Shown piece by piece: positions 7,136 to 49,811 of a stretch of DNA of 64,000 bases. A program made the position numbers and the translations under genes. The stretch covers positions 8,000,501 through 8,064,500 of the forward strand of contig JARWIR010000005.1 of assembly GCA_029959085.1 (NCBI GenBank), read 5' to 3'. The notes under the pieces were generated by a model that saw nothing but the letters and a program-made list of their open reading frames with translations, did not search any database and was not told the DNA's origin. Every line of letters begins with the position of its first letter. Position 1 is the first letter of the stretch. Source of the stretch: Nemophila menziesii. Taxonomy: Eukaryota > Streptophyta > Magnoliopsida > Boraginales > Hydrophyllaceae.

Positions 7136-8648
7136 TGATGTCTCCTCATTTGTGATAATATAATATAATTCTGAGACATCATTTTAGGCTTATTTATTAG
7201 TTTATTGGTTGAATTGAGCTTAGTTTAGTGCACTTTCCTATTTTGAGTCTTGATTTAGTAACATAATATTTTTAGAGCATATTGGGTTTAATTGTTTATT
7301 TAGTGTGAAGCTTTAAAGATAATTATGGAGATTAATTAGAGTCCAAGTCAAAGACTACAAGATATGGAAAGAGATATGCATGGAAATTGGAGATAGAAGG
7401 AAACAGAGTTCAATTAGGAAAAGGAAAAGCTGCCTAAATCTGAATTTCTGCACCACACGCCTAAAGAAGTGGAAATTACTCCTACAAGGAAGCCGATTTT
7501 GGTAAATTCCTTTCATAGGGACATAGATAATTATGTGACGATTCTTTTGGTATATTATGAAGCTCAAACCGACCAATAACGAAGAAGATATGCCCAAAAC
7601 GGTCCAGCAGTGTTTATCTTTATTTCCTTACGAATTTGAGTTGGGCTTGGAGTCTATTACTTAGCCTTTCCTCCAAGAAACGAATTAGGTCAACCTATAC
7701 ACTATAAATACAGCCTCTTAACACTCTTAAATCATCCTTGGCCAGACCTTAAGGCCAAGAGGAAGCTGCAACACAAGAGGAGAAGTCTGGAAGGAGCAGA
7801 ACACCATATGTCTTCTTCAACCTCTTATTTTGTAATTCTTTTCTCTTCTCTTCTTAGTATGAATTAATTCTTTTTAGTTTGAGTTTTAGCATATATGTAT
7901 GAACCCTAGTTTTGATTGACATCTATCTAATTTGGGAATTCTATGTTTTAAATTGAGTTATAGTTTTTATTCATTGTTTATGTGTTTGGATTTATATTCT
8001 GTGTTCTTGTGGAACCTAGGCCATATAGAATTACCATCTAGTAATTAGGTCACCATTGACAACAGTGTTTAATTACATGTTTAGCACATAACGTCTAGTA
8101 TTCGGTTTAGATCTGACAAATCAACCTAACTAGATAATCACTATGGTTTAGTTCTTGTGACTATTTACCAATTACAGGAAAAGTTTGCTTAGGAAGCCTT
8201 ATTGACACAGGTAAATCCTATTTGAAACTACCGATAGCGAATTGGAACCGATTATTGAAATACTACATAATTCACCCTTACATGTTTAGAACAGCAAAAC
8301 TAGTGGGGATTACATGTTAATTACTCAAGCTAACTTTCATACTATCTTCTTTTCTTTGCTGTTATTTAATTTTTTGTCTTTTAAATTATTAGTTTAGTTT
8401 TCTTTATTTAAAAACAAAATAAAAATCTATTTTTCTTTCTTTCTCTTGCGTATTATCTTTTCTATCTTTCATATTTGCACTTGATAATTTGCATAAGTTC
8501 TCTCTAACTTTCGTCAGTCTCTGAGGAACGAATCTTTATATCATTAAAACTTGCATACGTCCTGTAATACTTGCAGTACCGTGTTAGCTTAAGGTGTTTA
8601 TTTGCATCTAAATTATATCATCTTTTTATCACACCTTAGGCCACACCA
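7136..8648 (+). repeat. 5' LTR, family A
   Basis: Starts TGATGTCTCC and ends GGCCACACCA, immediately before the primer site. The 1513-bp sequence is shared with the solo LTRs at 437-3310 and 36538-38048 (both minus strand) and, for its last ~320 bp, with 10672-10991. A TATA-like 'ctataaata' lies near 7701, about where a U3/R border is expected. The last part contains the region 'ctgaggaacgaatct', which also recurs in family B as 'cctgagaacgaatct', so the two families are related. Confidence 0.88.
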
Positions 8649-32050: not shown

Positions 32051-32237
32051 GTAGGGATCTTTCCCCTCTGTGTTCACTTCTTCATTCGACACAGATATCA
32101 AGGTACCAAAAATACTTGAGCCGACAATGGGGGTACGTTCTACCTGCTAGGATGGACTGCGACGTGAACTTTCGCACCTGCACTTCACAGAAACACTGTA
32201 CCCTTCTCATTACGCGTAATATAAACTAAATTAATTT

Positions 32238-32670
32238 AAGAGTAAATACATCGAATACCCCCTGTACTATGGGCGGATTGACAACTTACCCCCCACAATA
32301 TTTTTTGATACTGGTTACCCTTCACTATTTGTTTTCGTGACTCCTTACCCCTGTTAACGGAAACCATAAAAAATCGTCGTTAGTTGGTCACGTGCTGGTC
32401 ATGTGGGAGAATTTTCGTGACATTTTACCCCATGTACTAAGTTTTTCGTCACATTTAACCCCCTGCTTAGTACAGGGGGTAAAATGTCACGAAAACCGCG
32501 CACATGACCAGCACGTGACCAACTAAAGGCGATTTTTGACGGTTTCCGTAAAAAGGGGGCAAGGAGTCACGAAAACAAATACTAGGGGGTAACCAGTATC
32601 AAAAAAATATTTTGGCGGGTAAGTTGTCAATCGGCCCATAGTACAGGGGGTATTGGATGTATTTACTCTT
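32238..32670. mobile_element. Fold-back (long hairpin) element
   Basis: A 433-bp near-perfect inverted repeat: the arm 32238-32450 (AAGAGTAAATACATC.., later CCCCCTGTACTATGGGC, GGTCACGTGCTGGTCATGTG) is the complement of 32465-32670 with few differences, leaving almost no loop around 32455. It is flanked by AATTT on both sides (32233-32237 and 32671-32675). No coding sequence. It lies inside element C. Superfamily is uncertain. Confidence 0.85.
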
Positions 32671-32726
32671 AATTTAAAGCTACTAAATTATTGTACACGT
32701 AAACTAATGAAAGTAATTAAAAATTA

Positions 32727-35640: not shown

Positions 35641-35959
35641 TCCTCTTACTTCTCCCCTTAGTTGGTCAATTTTATATGTGTTAAGAAACTTTACCTTAAA
35701 CCATTTATCCTTTCCCTTTATCTTAGATTGTTTTATCTTAGTATCCATATCTAGTTGTTCATCCTTAGCAATCCTAGCACTTAGCCTTCACACTTAACAA
35801 ACTCTCACCCTTAGTATCCTTGATTAAGAGTTCTGTATCATAGGTCATTTGACCTACTCCATCCTAGTTTAAAAGTCCTTAATTTACCAATTAGGTATAT
35901 ATTATATTAGTGTCTTGAACTTCCTAAAAAATTTCTTCAAGTTTTCTTTTAGATGATGT

Positions 35960-36532
35960 TGGGAAAAAGCATGGTGGGCGCCGGGAAAGACCGATGTGAG
36001 TGCATTAGCAATACCACCGTGACAATCATAGACAAACGTCACATTATGAGATAAGATATGAGGATCCAAAACTCTAGAAAAATGGGTCTAGTTATCATTT
36101 TCTTTGAATCTTACGATAGAAAATGCCATAGGAAATAGACTTGTAAAAACGGTGCGTTGTATGAGTATAAAGTTGGTTACAAGCACAAATCAGTGGGTTA
36201 TGTCATACAAATAGTGGGTTGTCGTACAAAGTAAACAAGTGTGTAATTTACCATAACACATGTGATCTACCTTGGTTAACATATATTGTAGTGAAAACAA
36301 ATATTTGCTCGTTATACTTATTCTTTATAAAGGTAGTTTTGGGGAACAACCATGGGCTACAACCTAAAAGGCGGACACCAAAAGAAAAGTGATACTACGT
36401 AAAAGCTCAAGTCCTAGGTTTACATGCAAGTGCAACGTCACCATAAGGATCAACCACACTCAAGTAATCAAAATATGACTAGATATGCTGGTATGACAGT
36501 GTAAAATCGCCAAAAATATTATCCCAAGTTTT
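35960..36532 (-). pseudogene. MULE transposase remnant, central part
   Basis: Minus-strand translation in shifting frames gives pieces of a mudrA-type transposase: near 36530-36440 (..DFTLSYQHI.., ..VVDPYGDVALACKP..), near 36370-36300 (..GCSPWLF..KNKYNEQIFV..) and near 36130-35960 (..NVTFVYDCHGGIANALTSVFPGAHHA). These match the order of the DDE domain (the second catalytic Asp region is 'YDCHGG'). It continues the N-terminal part at 38060-38830; the two were split by the solo LTR 36538-38048. Stops and frameshifts are frequent. Confidence 0.7.
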
Positions 36533-36537
36533 ATGAA

Positions 36538-38048
36538 TGGTGTCGACTAGGGTGTGATAAAATATGATATTAATAAAGTGCAAATAATCACCCTAGTCTA
36601 GCACGGTTCTGCAAGTATACATATCGTATGCAAGTTTAAATAAATAAGTAAGATTCGTTTTGCAGAGACTACGAAGGTTAGGGGAATCTTATGCAATAAT
36701 CAAGTGCAAATATAAAAAGCTAGAACAAATAAAACGCAGAGAAATAAAAGACAAATAGATTTTTATTTGGTTTTCAATTAACTAAATTAAACTACTAAAA
36801 TAAAGACAGAAATTTAAATGCAAGAGAAGAAGTTAGTATGAGAGTTTAGCTTGATTAAATAGCATGTAATCCCCACTAGTTTTGCCGTTCTAAACATGTA
36901 AGGGTGAATTATGTAGTATTTCAATAATCGGTTCCAATTGCGCTAGGTAGTTTTAAATAGGGTTTACCTGTGTCAATAAGGAGTCCTAAGCAAACTGTTC
37001 CTGCAATTGGTTAAATAGCAATACACTAAACCATGGTGATTATCTAGTTAGGTTGATTTGTCAGATCTAAACCTTATTCTAGACGTTATGTGCTAAACTT
37101 GTAATTAAACACCGTTTTCAATGGTGACCTAACTACTAGATGGTAATTCTATATGGTCGCGATCCACAAGAACACAAAATATAAATCCAAACACATAAAC
37201 AGAGAATAAAAACAATAATTCAATTTAAAACATAGAATTGCCAAATTAGATAGATGTCAACCAAAACTAGGGTGCATACATATATGCTAAAAACTCAAGC
37301 TAATAGAAATTTAGTTCATACTAATGGAAGAAAAGAAAGAAATTTCAAATTCAAGGGTTGAAGAAGACATTATTGATGAACAGCTTCTTCCAGACTTCTT
37401 TTCTTGTGTTGTAAGCTTCCTCTTGGCTTAAGGTTTTGCCAAGGATGATTTTCTAATGTTAAGAGGCTGTATTTATAGTGTATAGGTTGACCTAATCGTT
37501 TTCTTGAAGGAAAAGGTAAATATTGGACTCCTAGCCCAACTCAAATTCGTAGCCCAAAAACATGGAATCAGCCCCGTTTTTGTTTTGGTCCTACCAGCTT
37601 CAATACTTATTCGATTGACGTGTATGAGTAGTTTAAATTCATCGTCTCGAAAATATATTTAACTTTGCTCTTGACCGTTTTTCCAAATTCCTCACCTATT
37701 TTGAGATATAAGGTGATTTGTGGTCGTAGGTGCTGGAATTCAGATTTATGGCAACTTTTTCTTTTCCATATTTTTAGCTTTTATTTCCTTATCTTCAATT
37801 TCCATGTTTATCTTCTTTCTTTTAGCTCTTTGATCCAACTTGGACTCTAATTAATTACCATATATCTCTAAAGCTTCACACTACAAAAATAATTAAACCC
37901 AATATGCTCTAAAAATAATAAATAATCAATTCAAGACCCAAAATAGGAAAGTGTACTAAATCATGCAAAAATCGACCTATAAACTAATAAATATGCCTAA
38001 AATAATGTCTCGGAAATAGATTTTATTATCACAAATGAGGAGACATCA
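36538..38048 (-). mobile_element. Solo LTR, family A, minus strand
   Basis: 1511 bp. On the minus strand it starts TGATGTCTCC (38048) and ends ..ACACCA (36538), and it matches the LTR at 7136-8648. The flanks ATGAA (36533-36537) and ATTAA (38049-38053) are a 4-of-5 matching target duplication. It sits inside a decayed MULE transposase, whose coding sequence continues on both sides, which supports the boundaries. Confidence 0.88.
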
Positions 38049-38059
38049 ATTAACATCCA

Positions 38060-38830
38060 TGTACGCAACCTTGTAGTTGATGTCATATTTGTAGTCATAT
38101 TTTAGCAAGTTCATTTTATGCACAGGTCTTGTATCTGGTTTTGAAAGCACCTCGTCGATAATAATGTCTTTTATCGCACCACCGGATAGGCAGTCGGGTC
38201 ATGAACAATTGTCTGTGTGGGGGTCCACACATGTGTTGTTTGACAAACTTCCTCAAGTATATCTTGTGATCTACATTAGCCATGCAAGCGCACACATACC
38301 AGTTGCAACCAGTAGATTTCTTATAAATGTAATAAGCCTCGATTCTTGTCGGTTAGTTGTGCCCAAGATCGAGATAATACCTAAACTCACGAGCATATGT
38401 TGCAAGTTCACACCTGAACTTTATCATTCAATCATGAAAACATTGTGTGGCTTCTTTCAAAGATATATTCCATGTGTTTCTCTTCAAAACCCTGTTCTTA
38501 TGATGATAATTCTTTTCAACAACCTCATCATCATCGTCGTCGTCATCTTTGTTGGGTAAATGGTGTACATCACGCGGGATGAGATGGGTGGAATAAAAAT
38601 CAAAGCACCCGTCAAAGGTGGAGATGTATCGGCAGTTGCAACATTTGATTCACATATTAAAATTTCAAATTCATCCACAAGGTTGTGAGTGTGACCCAAC
38701 AACTTAAAGTCTTCAGTCAACTGGTGGAATGTAGCAAAGTCACCCTTACTAACAGTGTTGCACTTCTGATACTCACCAATGGAGTAAAAGTAAACAACAC
38801 ACTTACATTCAACATGGACCATGTTTTAGC
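38060..38830 (-). pseudogene. MULE transposase remnant, N-terminal part
   Basis: An intact 112-codon frame begins at 38822 on the minus strand (MVHVECKCVVYFYSIGEY..), and further pieces to about 38060 read ..ELATYAREFRYYLDLG.. and ..GCNWYVCACMANVDHKIYLRKF..HMCG, matching the MuDR-type DNA-binding region (GCxW..A..., ..HTCG) that precedes the transposase domain. The frame is broken. From 38890 to 40137 the DNA is AT-rich with no recognised feature. Confidence 0.7.
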
Positions 38831-40137
38831 AACATAACTCTTGATTGATTCAAACAAATAGAATAATTGAAACAAATTCAACGTTTTCTCCTCGATGTAT
38901 CAGAGAATGACAAGTACATTTGAAAACATTTCTTAATCTGAAAGTGAAAAAACAATATGAAAGAACATATAATATTCAATAAGTCACCACCATTAATTAT
39001 AAAAAAACATGGTTTACTAATTTAATAACAATGGGTTATAGGCATATAACCTGAGTTATAAGCTTTTGATAATGAGTTAGTATTGTAAAATCATTGGGTT
39101 GATAAAAATAATTCATCGGGGTGGCAATCAAACTCTTAAACCGTGATGAGGAACAATGATTTTGCCCTTAACTAAGTAAATATGAACTTAATAATTTTAA
39201 AATCGTAACAACTTCAACAATAAACACATAGAAATTGCAAGATAGAAAACAAAAAATATATGAACATGTACATATTTGTTCTCAAACCAACATATGAACT
39301 TACAAACCTAATGTTACGAATAAAATATATGAACTTACTAACCTAATAGTATACTAGAATCATAAACCAAAACGAAATTATAGCATATGAGAACAACTGG
39401 TATCATAACACTAAATCGGTGAACATGATATGAATAACAATTAATGTAATACTTCAACATAGATGCAAAAATTTAAATGATAATATGAAACATGTAACTT
39501 TATTGAACGACAACAAACTGTACAAAAAATAGATGAAAAGTCTGAAAAAATAGATGAAAACAACATATGTGATCAAAACGTATCGAAAAAACGAATATTA
39601 TATATCTGAATTAGTTCTATTGTAGCTTTCGTGTTTTTTTTTTTTAACATTTGAACGCAAGACAAATGTTTTTGGATAGTGATAAAGATGGAATGCACAA
39701 GCAAGATAGATTGAGAGTGAATATCACAATCTAAATTTGCTTCGCATGCTATTTTGATATCTCTAAATTTAGGATTTGAATTTGATCATTTGTTGTGCAT
39801 GTGGAATATGATATATATTCAAACACTATAGATACGTTTAACGCGTATATTTTAATTCTATTTTTTAAAATTTTCAGACTATTCGAGAAGTTGAAATAAT
39901 ATTATAAATCCAATATTTTTATTATTGTCAATGAAGGTAATAGGGTATTATAAAGAGAATATTGTAACATAATCAAGCATATGAATGGTAAATACGAAAA
40001 ACCATTTTTTATTTTAGATCTCTTCGAAAAGTAAAAAAATTGTTCATTTAATGGGATGGGATATTGTCTTTTTAACTTTTTAAACTAAAAGAGTAACTAA
40101 CATTTTAATCTAATGACATGTCTTTTGCTAAAATAAA

Positions 40138-40240
40138 GGGTGAATTATCTATAGGGTCTTAGAGATACTATTTTTTCTCTATAGAGTAGACTCTAGACTT
40201 TCGTTCTTCCTAGGGACCTCAACTTTGACAATTGTCTTTA
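40138..40240. repeat. Left terminal inverted repeat of the complete MULE
   Basis: Begins GGGTGAATTATCTATAGGG. It aligns imperfectly with the complement of 49170-49273, best in the first ~30 bp and around 'ttcttcctagggacctca' against 'ttcttactaaagacctca'. Related ends are found at 21219, 24510, 30074, 57254, 59940 and 61750. Confidence 0.8.
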
Positions 40241-40406
40241 CTACCCTTGTGGTATAAATACTCTTAGAATTAGTTTTCTCTTTCCATTCCCGTCAGACGC
40301 TCTCTCTCACTTTCTCTCTCACTTTCTCTCTCTACCCACAACGCTCTCCATTTCTCTCTCCTTTTTTGAAGCGCCGATTGAAATACTCCGATAAATCGAA
40401 CGGGAA

Positions 40407-43400
40407 ATGGCGAGCAATGGTGATTCTGATGCAGATTCAGATGAAAAAACAAAGGTTAGCAACGATTTTCGATACCCTTAGTTTTCTGGGTTTTAGTTTT
40501 TCGTCTGTTTCTGGGTTTTAGGGTTTTGCATGAGTACTCTTCGTTTTTGATCCGATACTCTGTGTTATTTGCTGAATACTCTGTAGATTTGGTGTTATAC
40601 TCTTAGTTTTGATATGAATGTGAACCGTCCTTTTCTGGGTTTTAGGGTTTTGCATGAGTACTCTTCGTTTTTGATCCGATACTCTGTGTTATTTGCTGAA
40701 TACTCTGTCGTTTTGTTGTTATACTCTTAGTTTTGATATGAATGTGAACCGGCTTTTTCTGGGTTTTAGGGTTTTGCATGAGTACTCTTAGTTTTTGATC
40801 CGATGCTCTGTGTTATTTGCTTAATACTCTGTAGATTTGGTGTTCTACTCTTAGTTTTGATATGAAGGTGAACCGGCTTTTTCTGGGTTTTAGGGTTTTG
40901 CATGAGTACTCTTAGTTTTTGATCCGATGCTCTGTGTTATTTGCTTAATACTCTGTAGATTTGGTGTTATACTCTTAGTTTTGATATGAAGCTGAACCGT
41001 CCTTTTCTGGGTTTTAGGGTTTTGCATGATTAAACTATGAGTACTCTGAGTTTTATATTAAAATTGAGAGTACTCCGAGTTTTTATATTACAATTGAGAA
41101 TACTCTGAGATTTTGTATGAAAAACTATGAGTACTCATAGTTTATATTCGAAAACTATGAGTACTCTTATATTTCGATAATATTGGATAAAAAACTTTGA
41201 TTACTGAGTATTTGTTGATCTTAACTGTTTTTCAGAAGGCTAAACAAGCAATACAGTACAGATCAAACATTAGTGGGATCCTGTAGATAATGAAATTCCA
41301 AGGTATGACAGAAGATCACCTTTCAGAATGCATAAGGACGCCTTTTTATAGGTTATGGAAAGGGATATTCGATAGGCGAGAAAAGTACAAGTTTATGAAG
41401 AAGTCTGACGTTCTGATCAAACAAGTTATTGATTGTTTCTCGTCTGTATCGGGTGGATTCGTAATTGGAGGAAAAGATTTAAAGATTACTGAGCTAGAAA
41501 TAAAGATACTTTTAGGTATCGAGTGTGGTCAAGATCATCTACCAAAGAAAGTTACAGTTGATGCAAACAACAAATCTGCGTGGTATAGGAGAATGTTCGG
41601 GAATGCGGGCGTAGTTAATTTAAAGCTTCTTAGTCACAAAATAGAAACGGTTATTGAAAATTTTAAAGACAGAGTACTCACTTTAGAGGCGAAGGAGGAT
41701 ATAGCTAAGTTATTATCAATATATACAGTAACGTCACTATGTTTGTCGAAAAGACATTACCAAGCAAAACAGATACATATCAGTGTATGCGAGGACTTGG
41801 AAAGCATAAAGAAGTACAATTGGGCTGGTGAAATGAAAAGTTACATGTTTAAATCAATTCGCAAATGTACGGATACAAAAAGGGCAAAGGGGGGTGTTTT
41901 TGTGTTGCTGGTAAGATGATTAAATACAGATGTATCTTAATCTTATAAAATACTAACTGAATAATATTTTTTAAAATTTGTAGCCATGGCTTTTTGAACA
42001 CGTGAAGGACATGGGTAACTTGAATGAGAAGGATGCAGTTCCGAGGTGCCTGAAATGGGAGTACATGCTCGGTGCTAAAAAAATCAATGTGGATGCAGTG
42101 CAGAGTAAAAAGGTTAAGGAATAGTGTTATACAGTATAAATATATACACACAGAAAACTGTGAGTACTCTAAGTTTTATAATATAAAACTAAGGGTACTC
42201 TCAGATTTAAAATATGAAAACTGTGACTACTCTAATAAATATTATATAAAACTCAGAGTACTCTTCGTTTTGATATATGATATATAAAAATTCTAAGTTT
42301 TGATATATGATAACTAAGAGTACTCTTAGTTTTAAAATATGAAAACTGTGAGTATTCTAAATACTTATAATATAAAACTCTGAGTACTCCAAGTTTTGAT
42401 AAATGGAATGTGTGTGACATACGCAGGTGAGGAGTAAGGAGCTAAAACCAACTACTTTGGAAGAGGGATGGATAAGAACAGAGGATGGTCACGACCAGGA
42501 AGTAAATGAAACAGAAGTGTTAAAAGGAGAGTGCAGTCGGGGTGCTGGGGAAGAGGTAGATGCAGTAGTTGGAGATAAAACTGTGACAAAGGATGGTGTA
42601 TTGAATGAAGATGAAAATGAAAATGTTGCAAAACGGGTGTCGGATGATGAAGACGTAAATGTCGATAGTTGGATGAATGATAGAGGAGATGGGGCGATTA
42701 GTGACATAATACGTGAAGATGATATAGATGAGAGTAAAGATAATGCAAGTGAAGAGACGAAGGGTTCTGAAAAAGAAAAATCAGATGAAGAAGGTAAAAA
42801 CAAAGAAAGCAATGAAGATGGAGGGAGAGAGATGGATTTAGATATGGATTTGGATAACGGAGATGGTAGTGCGGAAGAAGAAATGTTGATAGACGACAAT
42901 CTGGACGATGGCCCCCCAAGAGGGGGTGAGGAAGTTGATAAGATTGATGTTGAAAAAGAGTATGAATTAGAAAAAGAAGAAGAAGAGGAAGATGATAAGA
43001 TTGATGAGTTACAAACTGAAAAAAGTGTAATAGATGATTTGACAAAGGTAGTGGAGAAGGTTGTAGAAGGAATTAACAAAAACATTAGCAGTTTTAACGA
43101 AGACGTATACGAGGGGAAAGATTCAAATGATCCAGTTGTTATGTGTTTAAGAGAAAAATTGATTGAAGCCGGCAAGGAGAAAAAAAACTTAATAGATGAG
43201 ATTGATGTTTTGAGGAAGGAGAAATCTAAACAAGACAAGACAATATCAAGAATTGAAGAGATTTTAGCTGATCTGGAAAAAGAAAGAAAGGAAAAAAAAG
43301 AGCTTTTGCAGCTGGTAGAAACACTAAGCAACCAGGTAAACAGAGAAGAAATAAAAAACAAGGAGTCGGAAGATGCGATACTAAATCAACAAAGCAAAAT

Positions 43401-43827
43401 AAATCGTCTAAGAGAGCAAGTTGCGAAGCTGGAGGATGAAAAAGTAAAGTTGAACAAGGAGCACATGGATATAAGCACGTGGTACAACGAATGCATCGAG
43501 GAACTTGAAAAGTCGAAGAAAGAGTGCGAAAACTTGAGAGCAGCCGCTGCACTTTTAGAGAGTAATAATGAAGATGCAGAAAAAGGAACAGCAGAGAGTG
43601 AGGATGTGGAGGTGGTTGCTGAAGTTAAAACAAATGTTAAACGAAGAAGATCGTATAGATTAGCTACCCCAGGGTCGATAGAGAGAAATGTCAAGAAAAA
43701 TAACCGTGCAGCAGCTGCCGCAAAAAGTGTGGAATCTGATTTTGTTGAAGAACCAAGAACAAAAAGAGTTAAAGTAACAATGAAACCAAAAGAAGGGGGG
43801 TGGGGAAAACAACGAAAAAGAAAGTGA
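40407..43827 (+). CDS. Ulp1-type MULE gene, N-terminal part (DUF1985/PMD-like region plus acidic coiled coil)
   Basis: Predicted exons: 40407-40454, 41236-41910, 41984-42112 and 42427-43827, all phase 0 with GT-AG introns. Exon 1 encodes MASNGDSDADSDEKTK. Exons 2-3 encode about 260 residues resembling the N-terminal region of Ulp1-bearing MULE proteins (..YNWAGEMKSYMFKSI.. then ..VFVLL/PWLFEHV.. across the splice). Exon 4 encodes 466 residues: a very acidic Asp/Glu-rich first half, a Lys/Glu-rich coiled coil from about residue 200, and a basic tail (KRRRSYR.., RTKRVK) that could be a nuclear signal. A TAG at 41284-41286 interrupts exon 2 in frame, six codons before an ATG (41290), so either translation starts at 41290 or the copy is damaged. 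Exon 4 ends in TGA at 43825; the Ulp1 part starts in another frame at 43838. Whether the two parts form one protein is unresolved. Confidence 0.7.
40511..41030 (+). repeat. 124-bp tandem repeat in intron 1 of the Ulp1-type gene
   Basis: Four complete units and the start of a fifth begin at 40511, 40635, 40759, 40883 and 41007, a constant period of 124 bp with few substitutions. Each unit carries TTAGGGTTT (a telo-box-like word), one GAGTACTC (or atgagtactc) and several ATACTCT/TACTCTTAG words. Confidence 0.95.
41030..41220. repeat. GAGTACTC motif array, intron 1
   Basis: Downstream of the 124-bp units, copies of GAGTACTC occur at about 41039, 41068, 41133 and 41157, with one-base variants in between, each in a context like 'aaactatGAGTACTCtgag'. 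Spacing is 20-65 bp. Confidence 0.85.
42113..42426. repeat. GAGTACTC motif array, intron 3
   Basis: The intron between 42112 and 42427 carries GAGTACTC at about 42158, 42246, 42308 and 42379 plus variants (gggtactctc, gtgactactc, gagtattct) separated by short 'ttataatataaaact' spacers. The flanking exons have almost none. Confidence 0.85.
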
Positions 43828-43837
43828 TTGATAAAAA

Positions 43838-45098
43838 ATGACGGCAAATGTTAAAGAAACTGATAAGGAAAAGGATGCAGGTTTGAAGAAGATAACCACA
43901 GATGAATGGGAACAAAATTATGAAAACCTAAAGTGGGATGGTAAGGACACAGTAGATGAGAAAGATTATAATTTTCTTTTGAAAATTAAAAAAGAAAACT
44001 TGGGAGATGCTATATGGTGGGATAAAGAGAATGAGTTATTAGTATCAGGAAAAGATGCTTTTGCTCTTGCGCACAAAGGAATGGTTGAAGTACAGGTAAA
44101 CAAATTAAAATATGATTATATAAAAAATTGGACATTGAGTATGTGATTAATTCATATTGCAGGTGATTGAGGCTATGTTGAAAATGGTACAAGAAGAATA
44201 TGGAGTCAAAGGAGGGAAGTATAGTGTGACACACCAGAGTGCGATGAGCATGGTATGTAAACTCTAGGTTTTTCAATTTGAAATATAAATTAGTGAGTAC
44301 TCTGTGTTATAATGAAGTTGAACTGTGAGTACTCTAAGATTTTACTAAACAAATCTGTGACTTCGATAAGAATTGCGAGTACTCTGTGTTTCAATGGAGT
44401 TGAACTGTGAGTACTCACAGTTTTATTATTAAATGAGTACTCTGTGTTTTTAATTAACAAAACTGTGAGTACTCTGAATTTTATTATGAGTACTCATAGT
44501 TTTTAATAATAAAACTGTGAGTACATTGAAGCATGTGAGTACAAAACTATGATTTTTTTTTTTTTAAAATACAATTTTATTGCAGAGTTTGATCGAATTT
44601 GAGAACATTGAAGCATGTCAGATTTATATTTCAGAACCATTCTATAAAAATAGCCAAGATTATGCTTTCACCCTATTACCTGTGTTTGTTCAAGATGGTA
44701 GATGTGGACATTGGAGCTTGTTAGTGTACAGCAGGGATAATAAAGAATTTTACCATTATAACTCAATCAAACCGAAAAATCCAGAGTCAATTGGTTCAAA
44801 GACAGAGCAAACCGCAGCAAAATATAGAAAATTCTTGGTACAAAATGTCTTGAGGAAGATAAAACCAGGTAAAGAAGATAAATATATAATGACCAATGTA
44901 GATTGTCTTGAACAAGAACCAGGAAGCGTTGACTGCGGAGTATTTGTAATCCTATGGTGTTATGCCTTTTATCGGTGTGGGGTGATAAAACAGAAGACAT
45001 ACATTCCAAAATATATTAACGAAGGACGAGCAATGATTATTAGGAAATTGTTGCGCAGCAAATATTCACAAGGCATTAACAAGGCGGAACGTTCTTAA
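43838..45098 (+). CDS. Ulp1-type cysteine peptidase domain of the MULE gene
   Basis: Predicted exons 43838-44095, 44163-44252 and 44586-45098, all phase 0 with GT-AG introns (286 residues). The C-terminal exon shows Ulp1 (C48) landmarks: ..RCGHWSLLV.. (His codon at 44709), ..YHYNSIKP.. (Asn at 44760 where the family has Asp), and ..EQEPGSVDCGVFVI.. (Cys codon at 44934, with the oxyanion-type Gln seven residues before). The preceding exons (..AFALAHKGMVEVQ/VIEAMLKMV..) match the region ahead of the catalytic His. Ulp1 enzymes cleave SUMO precursors and conjugates; in MULEs the role is unknown. The Asn in the triad position makes activity doubtful. The upstream start is uncertain: an ATG exists at 43838, but this part may be spliced to the exon ending at 43827. 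Confidence 0.75.
44253..44585. repeat. GAGTACTC motif array, last intron of the Ulp1-type gene
   Basis: GAGTACTC occurs at about 44292, 44326, 44373, 44408, 44434, 44465 and 44485, with half-sites between (gtgagtaca). The recurring unit is close to 'aactgtGAGTACTCtgtg'. Seven perfect copies in 333 bp is far above chance for an 8-mer. Confidence 0.9.
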
Positions 45099-45419
45099 CT
45101 GATTAATCATCTATAATTTATTTTGTAAAGGGTGTTGGGAGGAGTTTGATTTAAGATTTAGACTTTTATTTAGACTTAATTGATTGGTTTTTTTATCTAT
45201 GTTTGATAAGTACTTGTTTTGTTTTGGAACTTTGGTATGATATTTTGGATGTTTTTGGATGTTTTAAAAACTTGATATGAAATATGAATGAAACAGGGTT
45301 TTGGTATGTTATTGATTGTTTTTGTAGTTAAAAATAGCATGAAAAATGAATTTGTAAAAGAAAAGTTAAAGCTTATGAATACACAATAAAAGTAAAAGAG
45401 AACTCACAATAGAAACACA

Positions 45420-45775
45420 AGGTACTCAGACAAATGAATGAGTACTACGAGGAAAATAGAGAGTACTCAGACAAAATGTGTGAGTACTCAGACAAAATGT
45501 GTGAGTACTCAGACAAAATGTGTGAGTACTCTGACAAATGTGTGAGTACTCTGACAAATGTGTGAGTACTCTGACAAATGTGTGAGGGATAGAGTAAACA
45601 TCCTATTATATAGAGTACTCATACAATTGTATAGAATGTTCAATGTAATGTATAGAGTACTCATATAATTATATAGAGTACTCATATAATTATATAGAGT
45701 ACTCTGAGCAAAGATAGAGTACTCATACAAATATATAGAGTATTCATCAAAGTGGTAAATAGTACTCATACAATA
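45420..45775. repeat. GAGTACTC motif array between the convergent genes
   Basis: Two styles of tandem repeat: 'GAGTACTCagacaaaatgtgt' (period about 21 bp, 45459-45580, later with 'tactctgac') and 'atagaGAGTACTCata..' variants (about 23 bp, 45612-45760). It lies between the stop of the Ulp1-type gene (45098) and that of the transposase (45933), in the shared 3' region. The regular spacing looks superficially like a CRISPR array but is a degenerate tandem repeat. Confidence 0.9.
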
Positions 45776-45932
45776 TAGATGTAGAAATTACAACAGATCA
45801 AAATATTTTAACAAGACTAACATGCTTAAATCAACTTCAACAACTTTAAAACATATAAATGTAGAAATGGTTCAGTGGCACAAATAACAATAAGTTAATA
45901 AGCATGATTAAAATTTAAAAACATAAGTTAAA

Positions 45933-48161
45933 TTATGATTTTGGTGGAGCTCTACAAGTAGATTTGTTATGTCCCACAATCTTGCAATTGCCACACTTAA
46001 TTGAACGGACAACCTTCTCGGTGCATGAACGAAAGCGCTTAGTCTGAGGCCTACCAGGTGGAACCCTAACATCAGGAGCAAGAATAATCTGAGATTCGGG
46101 CACATGGACTTCAACTTGAAAGGTAGACATAGCAGGAATACTCGTTGAATAGGTCTTAACGTATGATGAAGTGTGAAAGTATGACTCTACATACTCGAAC
46201 AGATCACGAACGGAGGCACTAGATAGTGCACACAAAGCATGCTGACAAGGGAAGCCGAGCTCTTGCCATTGACAACAAGAACAGGTACGGGCAGCTATAT
46301 CTACCACCATAATAGGATTTGAGCCAACTTGAAACAGAGTAGCAGTGGATTGTTGAATGGTCCAAGTGTAGCTAAGACCGACATTAGTGTTATAAAGCTC
46401 CATAATAGCCGGGCATAGTGGTGAAGTCCACTTGGATGACTTTAGAGATCGTTCATAAATCCACTGCATTAACTTAACACGAAGAGCGTCAACAAACTCG
46501 CAAACAGGAAGTCCCCTTTGTTTTATAATCCAGTAGTTAAACGACTCGACTGCATTAGAAGTCATCTCGCCATATCGTCTACCAGTGAAATAAGCATTTG
46601 CGTAATTTTCCCTTGGCAAACCCTTTAGGAATTCTTTGACCTCCTTCTTTCCTTCCAGCAGGAATCTAGCAAGCTGTTGATCGTAATGTGCAACAGTAGG
46701 AGCATGCGCGACTCTCTTGAGCAGATACACCATCCTTTCACGGTAAAAAGTCGAGCCGGAAATAGCAATTCTGAGGTTTTTCTCAATATGTTTAATGCAA
46801 TAACTGTGACTATCTTGAGGAAAAACATCCCTAACACCATTTAGTAGACCCTTGTGGCGGTCTGATATAAACGTGAGAGGGCGACCCTCGACAAGGGGCT
46901 TTAAAAACTGAAGAAATGCCGTCCAATTGTCGGTATCCTCACCGGGAACAACGCCAAAAGCAACAGGGAATAAACCTGATTAGGAAAAACATTAGAAAAG
47001 TGAGAAACAAGAACTAAAAAAGAATGTATACAAAGAGAAAAAGTAATAAGTTGTTATGATACCTTGATCTCCATCCTTGGCAGTAGCAACGAGTAACGAG
47101 CCTTTGTACTTGGACTTGAGGAACGTAGCGTCCAGAAATAACATGGGGCGACATGACTTAAAACCAGCAATTGAACCACCAAAAGCAAAAAAACATCTGT
47201 GAAATATCCGAGTTTCAGGATCGCAATGAACCGAGAAAGCCGTGCTTGGATCAAGATTCTGAAGCTTTTCAAAGTAAGATTGCAAACGATTGAATGAAGA
47301 GCCAATATCACCGTATAGAGTGTCCTTAGCCTTATTGATAGTAGACCAAGATGTTTTGTATGAAATATCGAAACCATAATTCTCCTTTAAGACAGTCTGG
47401 ATTTCTCTAGGCCTAGAAGATGGTTTAGAACGAAGTTCGTCGAAAATAACACGACTGAGAATTGAAGAATCCAACCGGGCGTGTGATGTTTTCTTGTAAA
47501 CATGACCACAAGTGTGAATATCTCTATAAGAACGCAAATACCAAAATCCGTTTGTCTTTTCAACCGATGCGTATATATACCATTTGCAACCCTTCTCGAT
47601 CTTGTAATAGCACTGCGCGCTGATGCGAGTGTTCTTGTTATTGTGGATATAGTCGAAATCAAACCCATCAACAGCAGCTTGCTTGCAAAGAACGGAACGG
47701 AACTCTTCAGCACCACCCACAAAACACTGTCCAACACCTTCTAACCCCAGTTTCCAAGAATCACTCAACATAACCTTCTTTTCATGAATAAAATAGGCTG
47801 GATCAGGGGTAGAAGCAACAACAGAACGAATAGGTTCAGCGGAGATTGGTTTAGAAATGACAGATGATTCTGGAGAGGATATATTGTTGAATGAAGGGGC
47901 CCTGGAATCAGTAACATAAATATAAATCTTGTCATACACACCACGTCCAAGAATCCACTTAATTGTGCAGAAATCTGTTTCAGTTTGAAGAAGGGAGTCT
48001 TTGTACTCCCCTACAGTATAAGATATAACAGCAGATTTAGATATCTGAGGCCACCTAGACTGAACAAAATTCTTTACTGAGTTAATGTCAATCAGCTGTT
48101 GAAATGGGAGGAAAATCTGATCAGTTCCCATCTTGAACACAACAAGCACATCTTGTATCAT
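45933..48161 (-). CDS. MULE transposase (mudrA-like), intact, 713 aa
   Basis: Two exons on the minus strand, 48161-47063 and 46975-45933, joined by an 87-bp GT-AG intron in phase 1, give 713 residues without a stop. A MuDR-type DNA-binding region lies at about 150-225 (..GCKWYIYASVEK.., ..DIHTCGHVYKK..). The MULE transposase DDE domain has D344 (LFLDATFLK), D405 (FISDRHKG) and E510 (NAVESFNYW). A SWIM zinc finger follows (C598-x-C600..C610-x-H612) and a CCHC zinc knuckle near the C-terminus (C694, C697, H702, C707). This enzyme cuts and joins element ends in the nucleus. Length and motif order match functional relatives, so this copy could be active if expressed. It converges on the Ulp1-type gene. 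Confidence 0.92.
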
Positions 48162-48179
48162 TATAACTGTCAGCAGCAG

Positions 48180-48550
48180 AGTAAAAAGAAAGAAATTAAA
48201 ACTAAGAGTATTTTCATACTATGAAAACTAAGAGTATTTTATTAGACTCAGAGTACTCTGTAAAAACTGAGAGTAATTAAAACAAACTAAGAGTATTTAA
48301 TAAAAATTGAGAACATACTATGAAAACTCAGAGTAATATGTAAAAACTGAGAGTATTCTATAAAACTGAGAGTATTCTATAAAACTGAGAGTATTTAATG
48401 ACAACTGTTAGCGCTCTACAAAACTCAGAGTACTCTATAAAAACTACGAGTAACCTATAAACTCATGTTACATTACAAAAGTCTGAGTACTCCGTCTATT
48501 TGAAAAACAAAGAGTACTCTTAGAAATTTGAAAACAGTGAGTATAGTACT
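48180..48550. repeat. GAGTACTC/ACTGAGAGTA array upstream of the transposase
   Basis: Lies just 5' of the transposase start codon (48161). GAGTACTC occurs at about 48249, 48426, 48483 and 48510, with many half-sites 'aaactgagagtattct' spaced 15-25 bp apart. Because it covers the likely 5' untranslated or promoter region, it could affect expression; that is inference. Confidence 0.85.
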
Positions 48551-49169
48551 GTACTGTACTAACATGCATGCAGCGGCTGTGATAAACCCTAACAATGGCA
48601 GATCGGAAAATTTAACGTTCAAAGAGTTAAACAATGACATAAACACGGAAAGTGAGACGAATATAAGCAATAACATTCATAACATGAGCAAATCTACCAT
48701 GAAACACATTAAAACGTAACAAAAACATCTAAAACGAGCATGATATAGTCACGTAATCATATGTAGAATGGAAAAAAGTGAACAAACGACGATACATAGT
48801 GGATATTGTGAATAAACATCGCTATTAAAAACAGAAAACGCAAATAACACACACAAAGGTAAGAATCTGTTGAAAAAAACAGTAAACATAAACGAAACAC
48901 ACCTTATAACGAAGGTAACAGTAAAAAATAAAGAGGAAATGCAGAAGATTATGACGTTATGAATCTATGAACACATGGGAGGAAGGTTGAAATCGGGTGG
49001 GGAGATTTGAAATAAATATGGAAAGCTTAGAAAAAGAGCTCACGAAAATGGAGAGAGAGAGGAGTAAAAGAAGCTCATGGAATTTACAAGAGAGAGGGGA
49101 AATGCAAAATAGTATATATATGAGACTAAAAATCATTTGAGGGTAGAAAGGTAACAGGGGTTTTGGGTT

Positions 49170-49273
49170 TCATGTGTTAAAAAGTTTCTGAGGTCTTTAG
49201 TAAGAAGAGGCTCTAGTAGGGGGTGGTATCTTGAAGAGGGGTGTGTCTTCAAGACCCTGGAGGTAATTATCTC
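49170..49273. repeat. Right terminal inverted repeat of the complete MULE
   Basis: Ends ..CAAGACCCTGGAGGTAATTATCTC at 49273, directly followed by the target duplication copy TAAAATAAA (49274-49282). Degenerate complement of the left end. The region 48560-49170 inside it is AT-rich without a recognised gene. Confidence 0.8.
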
Positions 49274-49811
49274 TAAAATAAATTAATGGTTGTGATAGAA
49301 ATATTGGACCATCCAATATTGGATGGAAGTATTACCCAAACTAAAATATAGATTTAAAATTACGAACAAAACCATTTTAAGAAATTACTACTTGGTAACC
49401 ATAGAACTTAGCCTAATTACCTTCAAATTGGGCACATTTTTTTAAAAAAAATATCTCATGATAAAGACTTAACCAAAGGCTAATTTAGTATTTTCGTGTT
49501 AAAGAACGTATCACAATTATTTTGCTTAAGACCAGTTCTACACCAAACCTCTCCAAATTCATTCCGTTAACCATTGACACAAAAAAAGAAAAAACCGTTT
49601 AAAACCCACAACGTCCAACATACACGTGTCTTAAAACTAATTGGATAAACCATAACCACAAATCTCCATAACGGAGTTTCCAGAATCCCGTTAACGGAAG
49701 TGGAATAATTTCTCCGTTACTTTCAACGGATCGTGGACCCCACACGCCAACGTATAACAAGTCCATACTTACACCGCACCGCACCGCACTGGATCATTCT
49801 CTCTCACAAAC

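What the first reader, a model, noticed from the sequence alone, without database searches (positions are those of the whole stretch)
40138..49273. Non-coding parts of the complete MULE are saturated with the palindrome GAGTACTC
By eye about 35-40 copies of GAGTACTC (plus many one-base variants) occur in intron 1, intron 3, the last intron, the convergent 3' region and the region upstream of the transposase. The exons have almost none (one near 41669). An 8-mer is expected less than once in 9 kb. The exclusion from exons and spread over all introns suggest selection on the motif, not one local expansion. In Arabidopsis VANDAL MULEs, short motif arrays in non-coding DNA are bound by an element-encoded protein (VANC) that counteracts silencing. 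I infer an independent analogue here, in a MULE whose second gene is a Ulp1-type protein.
Basis: partly seen in the sequence, partly recalled or inferred. Interest (0 to 1): 0.92.

Follow-up and report, generated by a model that had tools for sequence, protein, structure and literature searches.

The report
Transposon's self-protection docking-site arrays
A Mutator-type jumping gene carries 35 copies of the eight-letter palindrome GAGTACTC, all but one outside its predicted coding exons, and these are likely docking sites for its own predicted DUF1985 protein, which would keep the element from being silenced by DNA methylation, as is known for VANDAL elements of Arabidopsis.

Summary
The element (40138-49272, 10-bp target-site duplication) holds 35 exact GAGTACTC against 0.12 in shuffles, 34 of them non-coding, in six arrays of differing unit length. 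The "independent analogue" reading is not supported: the second gene encodes DUF1985, the domain of VANC anti-silencing proteins, next to a Ulp1 peptidase frame, and its DUF1985 exon is 39-54% identical to 21 other DUF1985 loci of the genome. Best new evidence: a sister element with the same layout and a 65-69% identical transposase has no GAGTACTC but 38 copies of CTCAGWAC, none in 5,250 bp of exons. Two broken DUF1985-Ulp1 genes carry a third, sparser motif. The motif thus changes with the fast-evolving DUF1985 gene rather than the transposase, as published for VANC/VANDAL. Binding and demethylation are untested; one test for conservation of the sister motif was negative; close copies of this element could not be searched. 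Verdict: new member of a known kind, with a palindromic motif.

The parts
40128..40137 (.). left target-site duplication CTAAAATAAA
   Evidence: read from sequence; identical to 49273-49282
49273..49282 (.). right target-site duplication CTAAAATAAA
40138..49272 (.). complete MULE, 9,135 bp, with strongly degenerate terminal inverted repeats
   Evidence: target-site duplication; alignment of the two termini
40407..43827 (+). gene A (VANC-like): exons 40407-40454, 41287-41910, 41984-42112, 42427-43827; 733 aa, DUF1985 + acidic stretch + coiled coil. Borders inferred; the model uses the splice acceptor ending at 41286, since from the other candidate acceptor (ending 41235) an in-frame TAG at 41284 is met
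   Evidence: open frame; Pfam DUF1985 E 2.4e-4, 21.5 bits, below the gathering score of 35.1, lost in the full-length scan; 39-54% identity to 21 of 21 genomic DUF1985 loci, 8 of them over the cut-off
43838..45098 (+). Ulp1/C48 peptidase frame: exons 43838-44095, 44163-44252, 44586-45098; 286 aa; separated from gene A by a stop at 43825-43827 and a change of frame
   Evidence: Pfam Peptidase_C48 E 6.9e-8; similarity to SENP8, E 3.7e-4; fused to the DUF1985 gene's coil exon in sister element Z
45933..48161 (-). MULE transposase, 713 aa, exons 47063-48161 and 45933-46975; no internal stop
   Evidence: Pfam MULE E 1.5e-19, Transposase_mut, SWIM
40502..40997 (+). array 1a, intron 1: four 124-bp units, each with one GAGTACTC and further TACTC half sites
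41039..41166 (+). array 1b, intron 1: 29-31-bp units, 4 exact + 1 variant
42162..42389 (+). array in intron 3: 31-32-bp units, 4 exact + 3 half-site variants
44295..44544 (+). array in the last intron of the Ulp1 frame: 7 exact + 2 variants
45420..45767 (.). array in the convergent 3' region: mostly 20-22-bp units, 11 exact + 5 variants
48206..48519 (-). array upstream of the transposase: about 20-bp units, 4 exact + 9 GAGTA-type half sites
41672..41679 (+). the only exonic GAGTACTC (in the DUF1985 exon)

Best explanation
The GAGTACTC arrays are most likely the binding sites of the element's own predicted DUF1985 (VANC-type) protein, which would gather on the non-coding DNA of the element and strip it of silencing DNA methylation. 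Shown: an element with an open transposase frame and an open DUF1985 frame (exons inferred); 34 of 35 motifs outside those exons; motif spacings with a maximum at a 10.4-bp period; a sister element of the same layout with a different motif in non-coding DNA only. Inferred: that the DUF1985 protein, perhaps as a dimer on the palindrome, binds the motif; that density and helical phasing make binding cooperative and element-specific; that bound protein removes or blocks methylation so that the transposase gene is expressed; that the Ulp1 part contributes in an unknown way.
Against: No binding or methylation data. DUF1985 scores below Pfam's gathering score in the window protein and drops out in a scan of the full 733-aa protein. 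In the sister group, motifs of L027 were retained in only 5 of 12 (L040) and 4 of 12 (L041) cases, and motif columns differed by 14% and 10% against 5.5% and 6.5% for other non-coding columns (choosing columns by the motif inflates this, and L040 has a stop). The units were registered largely by their half sites, which favours the core. DUF287, drawn for Arabidopsis VANCs, was not found. Tandem duplication makes spacings dependent; all pairwise distances of exact motifs up to 150 bp peak at 10.1-10.2 rather than 10.4, and Z peaks at 10.7. X and Y motifs are sparse and one of the eight in Y lies within the DUF1985-homologous stretch. Close copies of this element were not examined. No confident fold of the DUF1985 exon (pLDDT 36.8 and 38.3).
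Confidence: 0.8

Rival explanations
1. Neutral minisatellites: short tandem units expand in introns and spacers of the element by slippage and are homogenised; exons lack them only because coding constraint bars expansions.
For: Motifs sit in tandem arrays; no sign of better conservation of the motif between sister copies; two of five arrays show no significant core conservation.
Against: Arrays of different unit length and unlike flanks share just the 8-bp core. The sister element has one different motif across its non-coding parts.
Confidence: 0.1
2. The motif acts in RNA (splicing, stability or small-RNA avoidance) because it lies in introns and is oriented with transcription.
For: Half site TACTCT runs with the gene: 17 against 1 in intron 1; upstream of the minus-strand transposase AGAGTA 12 against TACTCT 3. 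In sister Z, CTCAGWAC is sense in 14 of 15 sites of gene A's 5' part and introns and in 15 of 15 sites of the transposase intron and upstream region.
Against: Arrays also lie in the convergent 3' region and upstream of the transposase; the window motif is a palindrome; VANC21 sites on DNA are likewise arrayed in one orientation (PMC5735166, passage).
Confidence: 0.05
3. The motif is the transposase's own binding site.
For: The element encodes a transposase with a DBD_Tnp_Mut match.
Against: No exact copy in the first 394 bp or the last 753 bp. A sister with a 65-69% identical transposase has another motif.
Confidence: 0.03
4. A host protein binds the arrays, for example to silence the element.
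For: [quoted passage not shown]
Against: The motif differs between sister elements along with an element-encoded gene; a silencing site would not be expected to be kept dense (inference).
Confidence: 0.02

Closest known systems
VANC21/VANDAL21 and VANC6/VANDAL6 of Arabidopsis (Hosaka et al. 2017, PMC5735166; passages seen)
   Same: MULE with transposase and a DUF1985 gene; short motif in dense tandem arrays in introns and spacers, rare in exons; motif differs between related families; transposase more conserved than the DUF1985 protein.
   Different: GAGTACTC is a palindrome; YAGTATTAY and AGTTGTCC/AGTTGTAC are not. No DUF287 found here; a Ulp1 peptidase frame follows the DUF1985 gene.
Kaonashi/KIU MULEs: VANC genes with a captured Ulp1 domain (Hoen et al. 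2006 and Sasaki et al. 2022 as described in PMC13317346, passages seen)
   Same: DUF1985-type gene and Ulp1 peptidase in one MULE, with a family-specific motif in non-coding DNA.
   Different: In the window copy the Ulp1 frame is cut off from the DUF1985 gene by a stop (43825); in the sister element Z the coil exon runs on into the Ulp1 part. The motifs of Sasaki et al. 2022 were not seen, so a published match is not excluded.
Spm/TnpA and MuDR/MURA
   Same: Element-encoded protein linked to loss of DNA methylation on the element (PMC10398659, passage).
   Different: Other proteins; MURA acts on terminal inverted repeats, whereas here the arrays are internal non-coding DNA.

Membership tests
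VANC-type anti-silencing MULE | MULE transposase in a complete element with 9-10-bp target-site duplication and degenerate terminal repeats | tested here: met
   degenerate terminal repeats given as a VANDAL feature in PMC10398659 (passage)
VANC-type anti-silencing MULE | Second gene with a DUF1985 domain | tested here: met
   Direct hit below the gathering score (21.5 of 35.1 bits); 8 of 8 aligned members (window + 7 of the 21 loci) match DUF1985, best 1.2e-8; 39-54% identity to 21 of 21 genomic DUF1985 loci, 8 over the cut-off
VANC-type anti-silencing MULE | Short motif in dense arrays confined to non-coding DNA | tested here: met
   34 of 35
VANC-type anti-silencing MULE | Motif differs between related families while the transposase is conserved | tested here: met
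   one sister element fetched whole
VANC-type anti-silencing MULE | Motifs arrayed in one orientation | tested here: inconclusive
   a palindrome has no orientation; half sites are oriented; sister motif is oriented except in the convergent region, 2 forward and 6 reverse
VANC-type anti-silencing MULE | Helical periodicity of motif spacing (feature recalled from the abstract of Sasaki et al. 2022, paper not held) | tested here: inconclusive
   maximum at 10.4 bp, R 0.65, n 29; sister R 0.50, n 30, maximum at 10.7; spacings not independent
VANC-type anti-silencing MULE | Protein binds the motif and causes sequence-specific loss of DNA methylation | not testable with these tools
   needs DAP-seq/EMSA and bisulfite sequencing
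VANC-type anti-silencing MULE | Other copies of the same family share the motif | not tested
   genome search unreachable for the transposase, DUF1985-exon and array queries
Arabidopsis VANC with DUF1985 and DUF287 | DUF287 domain (drawn for VANCs in PMC5735166; recalled as gained and lost among VANCs, so not taken as defining the whole kind) | tested here: not met
   no hit at E <= 1 in the full protein
KIU/Kaonashi (Ulp1-bearing VANC) | Ulp1/C48 domain with the DUF1985 gene in a MULE | tested here: met
   also in sister Z
KIU/Kaonashi (Ulp1-bearing VANC) | DUF1985 gene and Ulp1 in one open frame | tested here: inconclusive
   coil exon runs into the Ulp1 part in Z; in the window a stop at 43825 and a frame change, possible splicing not excluded

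The most novel reading that the evidence does not exclude
Within one genome at least three DUF1985-Ulp1 lineages carry variants of one motif built on a shared core, (T)ACTC, read with transcription: TACTCT or the palindrome GAGTACTC here, TACTCAGWAC in the sister family, ACTCATCA in X and Y. That amounts to a readable protein-DNA recognition code in which the fast-changing DUF1985 protein sets the extension, and in the window lineage it has turned into a palindrome read by a dimer, making the target independent of orientation.
Probability: 0.3. Interest if true: 0.7.

Novelty: new member of a known kind. Interest (0 to 1): 0.5.

Why it matters
It shows a VANC-type motif system in a complete element of a 1.5-Gb genome (so not the Arabidopsis elements where it was found) and, in the same genome, a sister element of the same layout that uses another motif. 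The pair is a ready-made test of what in a DUF1985 protein sets its DNA target, with possible use for sequence-specific demethylation.

Tried and rejected
Independent origin of the system: rejected, DUF1985 homology. Protein database search with residues 1-270 of gene A: 1,021 candidates, none at E <= 1. Structure prediction of the DUF1985 exon alone and with 7 genomic relatives: too poor to search folds. PDB search of the DUF1985 part: one chance-level hit, E 0.42. Directly abutting double motif GAGTACTCGAGTACTC: 0 in the whole genome on either strand, 9 and 9 for the reversed control; says nothing on spaced arrays. Literature: GAGTACTC inside any word, 368 papers, the 20 listed show by title none on a transposon anti-silencing motif (listing only); 'VANC' + 'helical periodicity', 4 papers, none relevant by title. 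Conservation of the sister motif: not found. An intron joining gene A and the Ulp1 frame: phase-compatible GT..AG pairs exist, none convincing to me. L038/L039 (TATACTCA 6 times in 3.4 kb) were not extended or tested by shuffling. Of 17 loci of the sister group only one (L022) was fetched whole.
Full report
What is there. Window 40138-49272 is a complete Mutator-like element of 9,135 bp flanked by a perfect 10-bp target-site duplication CTAAAATAAA (40128-40137 and 49273-49282). Its termini align only as strongly degenerate inverted repeats. A minus-strand transposase of 713 aa has no internal stop (47063-48161, 45933-46975; Pfam MULE E 1.5e-19, SWIM, Transposase_mut). On the plus strand lies gene A (733 aa; DUF1985, acidic stretch, coiled coil) and, after a stop at 43825 and in another frame, a Ulp1/C48 peptidase (286 aa; E 6.9e-8). 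Exon borders are inferred from frames and splice sites; the gene A model uses the acceptor ending at 41286, because from the other candidate acceptor (41235) an in-frame TAG at 41284 is met.

The observation. GAGTACTC occurs 35 times in the element, against 0.12 on average (maximum 2) in 500 dinucleotide shuffles. 34 lie in 3,932 bp of non-coding and 1 in 5,203 bp of exon (that call began exon 2 at 41237, 50 bp earlier than the final model, and set transposase borders 1-2 bp off, which changes no count). The window outside has 2 in 54.9 kb and 20 stretches of the same contig have 3 in 200 kb. A divergent MULE remnant at 35935-38508 has none.

Anatomy of the arrays. Six arrays: intron 1a (four 124-bp units), intron 1b (29-31 bp), intron 3 (31-32 bp), last intron (spacings 18-50 bp), convergent 3' region (20-22 bp mostly), transposase upstream (about 20 bp). 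Units of introns 1b, 3 and the last intron share a longer palindrome-like unit AAAACT-NN-GAGTACTC-NN-AGTTTT (flank agreement 15-18 of 20), whereas the 124-bp and 21-bp arrays have other flanks (2-10 of 20) but nearly the same core (7-8 of 8). In three of five arrays tested the core is significantly better conserved than the flanks, in two it is not (array 1a was not tested, and units were registered largely by half sites, which favours the core). Half sites are oriented: TACTCT 17 to 1 in intron 1, AGAGTA 12 to 3 upstream of the minus-strand transposase. The 29 spacings between neighbouring exact motifs show a periodicity maximum at 10.4 bp, R 0.65; distinct spacings alone give R 0.50, p about 0.01 against uniform random spacings; all pairwise distances up to 150 bp peak at 10.1-10.2. 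Tandem duplication makes these spacings dependent.

The protein. DUF1985 was found in exon 2 of gene A with E 2.4e-4, below Pfam's gathering score, and was lost in the full-length scan. A search of the own genome with PF09331 found 21 loci at E <= 1e-3 (150 of 323 candidates scored), 8 over the cut-off. The window exon matches all 21 at 39-54% identity, best E per locus 1e-42 to 1e-60. The window exon and 7 of the 21 loci, aligned, all match DUF1985, and 3 of these 8 also match the plant mobile domain. VANC proteins of Arabidopsis carry DUF1985 (PMC5735166, passages). So the second gene is a VANC homologue.

The sister element. Of the 21 loci, 17 form one group; L027 and 14 others are 97-99.6% alike to it over the aligned part, and L040 and L041 85-89%. 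One of the group, Z (L022 + L044, 9,826 bp), was fetched whole and has the same layout: DUF1985 exon, a 634-codon open exon that runs from the acidic part into the Ulp1 part, Ulp1 exon, convergent transposase. Its transposase is 65-69% identical to the window's, but the DUF1985 exon only 39%, the coil region 27% and Ulp1 41%. Z has no GAGTACTC. It has 38 CTCAGWAC/GTWCTGAG (shuffle mean 0.57, maximum 3): 36 in 3,260 bp non-coding, 2 in a 291-bp stretch of introns 2 and 3 with exon 3, 0 in 5,250 bp exon; the window element has none (Z borders set from homology and open frames). The sites are sense to transcription in 14 of 15 of gene A's 5' part and introns and 15 of 15 of the transposase intron and upstream region; the convergent region has 2 forward, 6 reverse. 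Unlike the window, Z also has 2 sites in the transposase intron. Spacing R at 10.4 bp is 0.50 with a maximum at 10.7 (n 30). Motif number per 3.4-kb locus: 12 in 13 copies, 16 in L032, 11 in L036, 9 in L040, 5 in L041, so array size varies.

Further genes. X (L033 + L042) and Y (L037 + L043) are DUF1985-Ulp1 genes (DUF1985 exon 47% and 52-54% identical to the window's, Ulp1 30% and 56%), broken by stops, with no transposase hit in 9.7 and 9.3 kb. They carry TGATGAGT/ACTCATCA 9 and 8 times against 0.5 and 0.4 by shuffling, and 1 GAGTACTC each. In X all nine lie upstream of the DUF1985 exon and point with the gene, most of them far apart; in Y four are forward in the 5' part and four reverse in the 3' part, and one of the forward ones (1791) lies inside the DUF1985-homologous stretch.

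Mechanism. Most likely the DUF1985 protein binds the motif and clears methylation from its own element, as VANC21 does at YAGTATTAY arrays (PMC5735166, passages). Shown here: motif arrays, their place, the homologous gene, and a different motif in a sister element with a similar transposase. Inferred: binding, demethylation, dimer reading of the palindrome, role of Ulp1. In a comparison with SENP8 the Ulp1 frame keeps His and Cys of the triad, with Asn at the place of Asp (assignment of the triad recalled).

Against. Motifs of L027 were retained in only 5 of 12 (L040) and 4 of 12 (L041) cases, and motif columns differed more (14%, 10%) than other non-coding columns (5.5%, 6.5%). Choosing columns by motif inflates the former, tandem arrays align poorly and L040 has a stop, but there is no positive sign of purifying selection in that comparison.

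Known or new. Hosaka et al. 2017 (PMC5735166) and Sasaki et al. 2023 (PMC10398659) describe the system (passages seen); a 2026 review (PMC13317346, passages) describes Ulp1-bearing VANC genes that act on motifs in their own kind and are conserved among eudicots, citing Sasaki et al. 2022. That paper was not held; I recall from its abstract that VANC systems diversified in eudicots by gain and loss of DUF1985, DUF287 and Ulp1, and that motif sequence, density and helical periodicity set specificity. The finding is therefore a new member of a known kind. The palindrome and the motif switch inside one genome are what is fresh; whether they are already in that paper I could not check.

Noticed in passing
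35935-38508 (-): Remnant of a second, divergent MULE transposase (31-36% identical pieces), broken up by other repeats and without GAGTACTC.
   Followed up: partly
43825-43838: Stop and frame change between the coiled-coil and the Ulp1 part; in sister Z the same stretch is one open exon.
   Followed up: partly
44586-45098: Ulp1 domain keeps the presumed catalytic His and Cys but has Asn where SENP8 has Asp.
   Followed up: no
L021-L032, L034-L036 (genome-search loci): 15 copies of the sister DUF1985 gene are 97-99.6% alike to L027 over the aligned part, which suggests a recent burst of that MULE.
   Followed up: partly
alignment A1: 3 of 8 DUF1985 exons also match the plant mobile domain PF10536 (best 1.9e-9), hinting that DUF1985 and PMD are related.
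   Followed up: no
L027 against L041, DUF1985 exon: dN 0.105 and dS 0.115 (197 codons): the DUF1985 exon changes at nearly the neutral rate or is under mixed selection.
   Followed up: no
L038 and L039 (C79, about 41 kb apart): Two DUF1985 loci 99.9% identical over 3,405 bp, perhaps a recent segmental duplication.
   Followed up: no
32231-32677: Large imperfect palindrome, 86% identical to its own reverse complement over about 450 bp.
   Followed up: no
437-1767, 7313-8648, 36538-37551: Three copies of a repeat, 85-91% alike, the middle one inverted.
   Followed up: no
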